The translations under genes and the position numbers were made by a program. From Bacteroidales bacterium (GTDB lineage: Bacteria > Bacteroidota > Bacteroidia > Bacteroidales > GCA-2711565), in contig JANQLW010000060.1 in assembly GCA_028280405.1 (NCBI GenBank), positions 43,435 to 107,434 on the forward strand: a stretch of DNA of 64,000 bases, in the 5' to 3' direction. Within the stretch, counting starts at the first letter, position 1. Each line of letters begins with the position of its first letter. Under the pieces are notes generated by a model. It did not search any database and was not told where the DNA came from. It saw nothing but the letters and a program-made list of their open reading frames with translations. This document shows, one piece after another, positions 36,650 through 37,966 of this stretch.

Positions 36650-37966
36650 ATGAAAAAATTAACATTAACTTTAGCACTAACATTAGGTTTGTCGAGCCTG
36701 GTCATTGCACAACAAATGACAAAACCTCAGCTCATCAAAGCTGAAGGAAAAGCAATTTCTTTAAAACCATCTTATGCTTCTCCCGTATTCTTTGACCTGG
36801 ATAAAGATGGCAAAATGGAATTAATCGTAGGAACTTTCTACGGAGATTTCAGAGTTTATAAAAACGAAGGAACAATAGAAAATCCTGTTTATAATAAATT
36901 CGCCAAAATTCAGGCAGGTGGTAAAGATGCCAAAACTGCCAATTGGTGATGTACAGCTGTTCACCCACAGTTTGTGGATATTAATGCCGATGGGAATACC
37001 GATTTATTAGTAGCTGGATATGGAGGATTTGCTGACATCTATTATGGGAAAGCAGATGGAACATTCGCTGAAGCTAAACCATTGTTAAATGAAGATGGTG
37101 TAAAAGTAAACCTGGGATCTTATTGGTGCTATGACCAAAACATTTGGACTACCTTTGCCCGTGAAAAAATTAAAAAGGGCGGAATAAGCCATGCAGAAAT
37201 TGCACTTCAGGAAAAAATTGAACAACAATCAACGCATTTTACTTTATTAACGGTTGTAGATTGGGATAATGATGGAGATTATGACTTAATCCTAAACTCT
37301 CAACCTAAAGTTGCTAAAAAGGATTCTGATCAAAAACCTAAAGTTTGTCTGAATATTGGAGACAAAAAGAATCCAAAGTTCAGTCGCAAGGTATTTGAAA
37401 TAAAAGAAATAAGCAGAGTACATTATGCAGAAGCTATCGGTGACTGGGATGGAGACGGATTATTCGACATCATTTCAGGTTCGAAAGGATACCATGTTCA
37501 ATTCTACAAAAACATTGGGAAGTTAGGAAAACCTAAATTTGCTGAGCCTGTTATACTGTTTAAAAATGAAGATTTCATTAATGGAGCGCATGGTGGAGAA
37601 GTATGGATTATGCAACCAAGTATATGTGATTATAATAATGATGGGAAACTGGATCTTCTTATAGGAACAAATACAAACAATAATATCCCTGCAAAGCTTA
37701 CAAAAGAGCAAAAAGCTGAAAGAACTGAACTTGAAAAGGTATTAAAAGAAACGATTGATGGTATTACGAAATATAATAATGCCTATTATAAAAAGCATGG
37801 TCAACCTAAAACAAATGAGGCCTATAAAAAGATGACTGAAACATTAAACAAAAATGCAGATTTCAAAGCACTTGTAGAAAAACAAAAAGAGGTCTATACT
37901 AAACTATGGCCATTGAAAGATAAGATGGAAGGCGGAGGTTATGTTTGGGTTAGCCTGAGAAAATAA
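36650..37966 (+). CDS. Putative selenoprotein: secreted FG-GAP/VCBS-repeat protein with in-frame UGA (Sec) at codon 100, Sec-Cys motif
   Basis: ORFs 36650-36949 and 36974-37966 are in the same frame with one TGA at 36947-36949. Read-through gives AKTANW-U-CTAVHPQFVDINADGNTDLLV, aligning with ETG-U-CIGFTPQFVDLNNDGYMDLV of the 1721-2839 gene. Confidence 0.87.

What the first reader, a model, noticed from the sequence alone, without database searches (positions are those of the whole stretch)
36650..37966. Second, paralogous Sec-Cys propeller-type selenoprotein downstream of a SusC/SusD pair
The same architecture recurs 34 kb away on the opposite strand: TGA at 36947-36949, context NW-U-CTAVHPQFVDINADGNTDL versus TG-U-CIGFTPQFVDLNNDGYMDL. 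Two independent paralogs keeping TGA-TGC at the same aligned position argue strongly against sequencing error or pseudogenization.
Basis: partly seen in the sequence, partly recalled or inferred. Interest (0 to 1): 0.92.

Follow-up and report, generated by a model that had tools for sequence, protein, structure and literature searches.

The report
Selenium-containing secreted propeller protein family
The gene is a real selenoprotein: its in-frame UGA is read as selenocysteine, and it belongs to an apparently undescribed family of secreted beta-propeller proteins with a selenocysteine-cysteine pair, present in 20 copies in this bacterium and also found in many planctomycetes and verrucomicrobia.

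Summary
The ORF at 36650-37966(+) has one in-frame TGA (36947-36949) followed by Cys (TGT here, not TGC). This genome has exactly 20 such genes. All carry TGA-TGY plus a nearly invariant hairpin, CCACA-GUU-UGUGG, starting 15 nt after the UGA. Homologs from other genomes with the motif carry TGA in 42 cases and TGT/TGC in 8, so Sec replaces the first Cys of a CC pair. In the hairpin, Gln is always CAG and Val/Ala always GTG/GCG, with four compensatory changes. The window also holds tRNA-Sec, selA, part of selB and a YedE selenium-transporter gene; selD is elsewhere in the genome. SelB tracks UGA in other genomes (38/42 versus 1/8). Downstream codons are under purifying selection. A third UGA gene (38125-39594, C-U motif, DsbD_N domain) lies next door; the genome has at least 34 Sec-gene candidates. 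No NCBIfam model, no entry in a 2026 list of 119 prokaryotic selenoprotein families and no open paper searched describes this family. Its job is inferred: a secreted Sec-Cys thiol/selenol redox propeller, linked to SusC/SusD uptake loci and reduced by DsbD_N or thioredoxin-like partners. No biochemical test was possible.

The parts
36650..37966 (+). Family A selenoprotein gene: signal peptide plus FG-GAP/VCBS beta-propeller with Sec100-Cys101
36947..36949 (+). in-frame UGA read as selenocysteine; next codon TGT = Cys
36965..36977 (+). SECIS-like stem-loop CCACA-GUU-UGUGG, 15 nt after the UGA
38125..39594 (+). Family B selenoprotein gene (489 aa): Cys271-Sec272 motif (RCUGC), C-terminal DsbD_N domain with C470/C475
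38938..38940 (+). in-frame UGA of the family B gene (Cys in homolog P0127)
38956..38971 (+). SECIS-like hairpin of the family B gene, same offset from the UGA as in family A
1721..2839 (-). paralogous family A selenoprotein gene, UGA at 2504-2506, hairpin 2476-2488
12289..12381 (-). tRNA-Sec (anticodon UCA); Rfam RF01852 60.2 bits
10851..12260 (-). selA, L-seryl-tRNA(Sec) selenium transferase
   Evidence: TIGR00474, 538.9 bits
1..1337 (-). 5' part of selB (Sec-specific elongation factor), runs off the window start
   Evidence: TIGR00475, 368.6 bits, C91:42867-44771
7422..8486 (-). YedE-type putative selenium transporter
   Evidence: TIGR04112, 485.9 bits
5771..6943 (-). cysteine desulfurase / Sec-lyase-like PLP enzyme, possible selenium donor
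   Evidence: TIGR01977 over cut-off; SclA model below its cut-off
9638..10606 (-). transglutaminase-like protein beside selA; same pairing in L179
29131..31055 (+). ECF sigma factor (29131-29685) and FecR anti-sigma (29874-31055) of the locus
31187..34663 (+). SusC-like TonB-dependent transporter with STN domain
34674..36275 (+). SusD-like lipoprotein

Best explanation
Shown by sequence: the UGA is decoded as selenocysteine by the cell's own SelA/SelB/SelD/tRNA-Sec system, directed by a stem-loop 15 nt downstream of the UGA, giving a secreted FG-GAP/VCBS beta-propeller with a vicinal Sec-Cys pair. The ancestral or alternative form of that pair is Cys-Cys. Inferred (about 0.5): the pair is the redox centre of a periplasmic or surface thiol/selenol oxidoreductase. 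It would cycle between selenylsulfide and selenol-thiol and be re-reduced by DsbD_N-type domains (fused, or encoded next door) and by UGPC/TlpA-like thioredoxins of the same operons. Its expression would be tied to an ECF-sigma/FecR-controlled SusC/SusD uptake locus.
For: (1) Machinery: tRNA-Sec, SelA and YedE, SelB, and SelD, itself with one TGA. (2) Sec/Cys exchange: full-length homologs have CC at the UC site; 42 TGA versus 8 TGT/TGC loci in named genomes; at least 10 U/C changes on the tree. (3) SelB above cut-off in 38/42 genomes with UGA versus 1/8 with Cys, Fisher p=2.4e-5. (4) Hairpin: CAG 62/62 and GTG/GCG 62/62, against own-genome backgrounds of 34% and 11% for CAG and GTG. Pair 21-29 is AU 53, GC 4, GU 3. 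The 4 GC cases are CCG...GCG, a compensatory change that also alters Val to Ala. (5) dN/dS downstream 0.08-0.41. (6) 20 copies, none with Cys. (7) Redox link: DsbD_N fused to the propeller in three own genes, in Chitinophaga and in a Bacteroidales MAG; family B and Trx-like selenoproteins in the same loci. (8) Confident propeller model, pLDDT 90.
Against: No protein-level evidence (mass spectrometry, 75Se). Taken alone, the hairpin of this gene is only moderately unusual (p=0.046). Paralogs are not independent, so the p-values overstate certainty. Pair 21-29 is the only stem pair with double changes, and L047 has a U-U mismatch there. Three UGA genomes show no SelB and one a truncated SelB (all MAGs). 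Five genus-mates lack both SelB and the family. The redox role rests on motif, neighbours and fusions only.
Confidence: 0.9

Rival explanations
1. The Sec-Cys pair binds a soft metal or metalloid (such as Cu, Hg or As) at the propeller mouth and serves in uptake or detoxification, not in thiol redox catalysis.
For: Vicinal Sec/Cys pairs suit soft-metal binding; several listed selenoprotein families are metal-related (PMC13188914); SusC/SusD neighbours fit an uptake role.
Against: Fusions and operon partners are thiol-redox modules (DsbD_N, TlpA/DUF4369, UGPC thioredoxins). No metal-resistance gene recognised nearby.
Confidence: 0.25
2. UGA is a stop codon and the short product plus occasional non-Sec readthrough is the function, or the genes are decaying.
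For: UGA is a normal stop in three of 45 window genes; databases hold the downstream part as separate truncated ORFs.
Against: Codon constraint on both sides of the UGA, CC homologs, hairpin, machinery, 20 own and 42 outside copies with the same UGA.
Confidence: 0.03
3. Genome-wide reassignment of UGA to an ordinary amino acid.
For: UGA is a rare stop here (3 of 45 genes).
Against: UGA still ends genes; the other window genes are open without internal UGA; internal UGAs occur at Cys-equivalent sites followed by a SECIS-like hairpin; a tRNA-Sec gene is present.
Confidence: 0.01
4. Sequencing or assembly error, or a chimeric MAG, created the pattern.
For: Genus-mates lack the genes; the source is a 91-contig draft genome.
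Against: Family A genes lie on 11 contigs; 42 independent genomes show the same UGA; estimated contamination 1.87%.
Confidence: 0.02

Closest known systems
Prokaryotic selenoprotein families (119 listed in PMC13188914)
   Same: UGA-coded Sec at a Cys-equivalent redox-type position, SelA/B/D and tRNA-Sec, stem-loop just downstream of the UGA
   Different: No listed family is an FG-GAP/VCBS propeller with a UC pair, or a CU + DsbD_N protein; NCBIfam release 20 gives no match to P0001, P0002 or P0003
FG-GAP/VCBS propellers with a CC motif (planctomycetes, Flavivirga, Chitinophaga)
   Same: Same family by alignment; same site, CC instead of UC
   Different: Cys form; 7 of 8 such genomes lack SelB over cut-off
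CRTAC1 and ITFG2 / integrin alpha propellers
   Same: Beta-propeller with Asp-rich Ca-type FG-GAP loops; top Foldseek and HMM matches
   Different: TM about 0.3-0.36 only and 10-13% identity; no Sec/Cys pair known to me there
TsoB rhodanese/DsbD-fusion selenoprotein (NF045694) and UxxC thioredoxins
   Same: The genome's WUGPCK thioredoxin-like selenoproteins match the Trx part of TsoB
   Different: Far below the TsoB cut-off (56 of 805 bits); families A and B do not match

Membership tests
bacterial selenoprotein | in-frame UGA with coding constraint on both sides | tested here: met
   dN/dS 0.08-0.41 on both sides where dS is not saturated
bacterial selenoprotein | Cys-containing homologs at the UGA position | tested here: met
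   (8 TGT/TGC loci; CC in metagenome homologs)
bacterial selenoprotein | SECIS stem-loop just downstream of the UGA with G in the apical loop | tested here: met
   loop begins with G in 62/62
bacterial selenoprotein | SelA, SelB, SelD and tRNA-Sec in the genome | tested here: met
bacterial selenoprotein | selenium shown in the protein | not testable with these tools
   needs 75Se labelling or mass spectrometry
FG-GAP/VCBS beta-propeller | FG-GAP_3 repeats and propeller fold | tested here: met
   PF13517 74.2 bits; model pLDDT 90; Foldseek
any known selenoprotein family in NCBIfam 20 | match over the curated cut-off | tested here: not met
   no match for P0001, P0002, P0003
DsbD N-terminal domain (for P0002 and the A fusions) | DsbD_N domain over the gathering score with its two cysteines | tested here: met
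   PF11412 34.7 bits, cut-off 25; C470 and C475 invariant
thiol-disulfide oxidoreductase (function) | redox activity of the Sec-Cys pair | not testable with these tools
   inferred from fusions and operon partners only
SELENBP1/methanethiol oxidase | own Pfam domain match | tested here: not met
   Pfam scan of P0001 lists only FG-GAP-type and BBS2_Mid models

The most novel reading that the evidence does not exclude
A new class of secreted selenoenzyme: a beta-propeller whose catalytic centre is a vicinal Sec-Cys pair, fed with electrons by DsbD_N/thioredoxin relays (some of them selenoproteins) and multiplied about twentyfold, with copies placed in SusC/SusD uptake loci, so that selenium chemistry takes part in nutrient acquisition at the cell surface.
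Probability: 0.4. Interest if true: 0.88.

Novelty: new variant of a known kind. Interest (0 to 1): 0.78.

Why it matters
It appears to add at least two unlisted families (UC propeller; CU + DsbD_N) to the selenoproteome. The first is widespread in Planctomycetota and Verrucomicrobiota but is split at the UGA in protein databases. It also reveals a selenoprotein-rich Bacteroidota genome (at least 34 candidates, against a reported bacterial maximum of 46 in PMC12013277); a 2016 survey (PMC5029168) names only Deltaproteobacteria, Clostridia and Synergistetes as selenoprotein-rich. The naturally paired UC and CC propellers allow a direct test of what Sec adds at one site.

Tried and rejected
Genome-wide UGA recoding (UGA ends three window genes). 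Pseudogenes or errors. Transfer of the Sec machinery from planctomycetes, suspected because a transglutaminase gene sits beside selA as in PMC4807772: own SelA and SelB score highest against same-order Bacteroidota, 350-548 bits versus about 230-318 for planctomycete/verrucomicrobial proteins, so not supported. Conserved neighbours in planctomycetes: no widely shared partner gene found. Structure search with family B gave only generic beta-sandwich matches. Rfam gave no SECIS match at this site. Thioredoxin-like members as support for the hairpin: weak. Same-genus orthologs for Ka/Ks: none exist, so paralogs were used; dS is saturated in many pairs.

Full report
WHAT IS THERE. The ORF 36650-37966(+) encodes 438 aa with one in-frame TGA at 36947-36949, followed by TGT. 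The paralog 1721-2839(-) has TGA-TGC at the aligned site. Both are FG-GAP_3/VCBS proteins with an N-terminal signal-like sequence. Immediately downstream, 38125-39594(+) is a third ORF with one in-frame TGA, context ERC-U-GCLYHG, and a C-terminal DsbD_N domain. The window holds tRNA-Sec, selA, a YedE selenium transporter and a cysteine desulfurase-type enzyme. The 5' part of selB lies at the window start, and selD, itself with one TGA, is elsewhere in the genome.

HOW MANY. A protein search of the genome shows further copies, all with TGA wherever that column is covered. Fetched regions give 20 family A genes, 7 family B genes and 4 thioredoxin-like genes (WUGPCK/WUWGC). Two more thioredoxin-like ones are on other contigs. 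With SelD this makes at least 34 candidate Sec genes. The motif TGATGYN12CCNCAGTTNGTGGA occurs exactly 20 times genome-wide, in the 20 family A genes, and 0 times in the reversed control. No Cys copy of family A was found in this genome. Other FG-GAP proteins there (C66, C5) are not of this family.

SEC/CYS EXCHANGE. Database homologs that are complete ORFs carry CC at the UC site (for example P0015 YCCIGSSPQFVD, P0054 NWCCMAVGPQFVD). Many others start just after the site, as expected when gene callers stop at the UGA. In named genomes, 42 loci have TGA and 8 have TGT/TGC at this codon; the UGA loci are mostly Planctomycetota and Verrucomicrobiota. A tree interleaves U and C rows with at least 10 changes, and places the two window paralogs in different deep clades. 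Family B has a Cys homolog too: P0127 (Prolixibacteraceae MAG) has RCC where these have RCU.

MACHINERY CO-OCCURRENCE. SelB over its cut-off occurs in 38 of 42 genomes with UGA and 1 of 8 with Cys (Fisher p=2.4e-5). One further UGA genome has a SelB cut by a contig end. The one Cys genome with SelB (G108) has another, UGA-bearing copy.

SECIS. In all 62 UGA members, codons 7-10 counted from the UGA as codon 1 encode P/S-Q-[FLV]-[VA] as CCN or TCA, CAG, NTN and GTG or GCG. They form CCACA-GUU-UGUGG or close variants 15 nt after the UGA. Gln is CAG 62/62 and the Val/Ala codon ends in G 62/62; own-genome backgrounds are 34% CAG and 11% GTG. Stem pair 21-29 is A-U in 53, G-C in 4 and G-U in 3. The four G-C cases (L052, L054, L088, L099) pair CCG with GCG and thereby change Val to Ala, a compensatory change. 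Only 1 of 8 Cys members ends the Val/Ala codon in G. Synonymous randomisation gives p=0.046 for this gene and a combined chi-square of 166 (40 df) for the 20 own genes; family B gives 41.9 (14 df), with a GGUC loop at the same offset in five of seven genes. These statistics treat paralogs as independent and are illustrative only.

CODING CONSTRAINT. Between close paralogs, dN/dS downstream of the UGA is 0.08-0.41, similar to upstream.

STRUCTURE AND CONTEXT. AlphaFold2 gives a beta-propeller (pLDDT 90, pTM 0.87). The best PDB relatives by fold are CRTAC1 and ITFG2. Most family A genes lie in loci with SusC/SusD, often with ECF sigma and FecR, together with DUF4369/TlpA-like redoxins, family B genes and Trx-like selenoproteins; two loci also carry an S9 peptidase. 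Three own propellers are fused to DsbD_N, as are Cys homologs in Chitinophaga (L095) and a Bacteroidales MAG (L104); in L116 a DsbD_N ORF follows directly. DsbD_N is known to pass electrons to periplasmic thiol proteins (general knowledge), so a thiol/selenol redox role is the best-supported guess, at about 0.5.

ORIGIN. The genome is an uncultured Bacteroidales-like Bacteroidota. Five genus-mates have neither SelB nor the family, and among 300 sampled Bacteroidota genomes only this one has strong matches. Own SelA/SelB resemble those of other same-order Bacteroidota more than planctomycete ones. How the 20 genes arose is open.

NOVELTY. No NCBIfam model matches. The 2026 list of 119 prokaryotic selenoprotein families has no such entry (PMC13188914), nor do deep-Sep (PMC12013277) or PMC5029168. 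Searches for selenocysteine with FG-GAP or VCBS return no open paper. Subscription papers and preprints are not covered, so priority cannot be claimed firmly.

WHAT IS SHOWN AND WHAT IS INFERRED. Shown by sequence comparison: UGA conservation, Sec/Cys exchange, hairpin constraint, machinery, selection. Inferred: actual selenium incorporation (very likely), secretion, and redox function with DsbD_N/Trx partners (about even odds).

Noticed in passing
window, 45 genes: TGA is a rare stop codon here: 37 TAA, 5 TAG, 3 TGA. This may reflect avoidance of UGA stops in a Sec-rich genome; no comparison with relatives was made.
   Followed up: partly
L116:2794-4869: A CC-type propeller ORF ends in TGA and continues in the same frame into a DsbD_N domain. 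The TGA lies in the linker and is not at the Sec site; it could be a point change or an assembly error.
   Followed up: partly
L048 about 4571-4954 (-), contig C74: A degenerate family A fragment with a TGA and a TAG in frame, beside another SusC/SusD pair: probably a decayed copy.
   Followed up: no
9638-12382: A transglutaminase-like gene sits beside selA and tRNA-Sec. A selA-transglutaminase-selB order occurs in a Verrucomicrobiales genome (L179) and a transglut_core gene is reported in a planctomycete Sec operon (PMC4807772). The link to selenium is unexplained.
   Followed up: partly
22521-36275: Two ECF-sigma/FecR/SusC/SusD loci stand head to head, diverging at about 29100; only the right-hand one carries the Sec genes.
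   Followed up: no
36340-36420: A long inverted repeat (gggaagccatccttttc ... gatgaaaggatggcttccc) and a terminator-like hairpin lie between susD and the Sec gene, so gene A may have its own transcription control.
   Followed up: no
public protein collections: Family members appear as roughly 290-330 aa fragments starting just after the UGA (for example P0004, P0008, P0014), so the family is systematically mis-annotated.
   Followed up: partly
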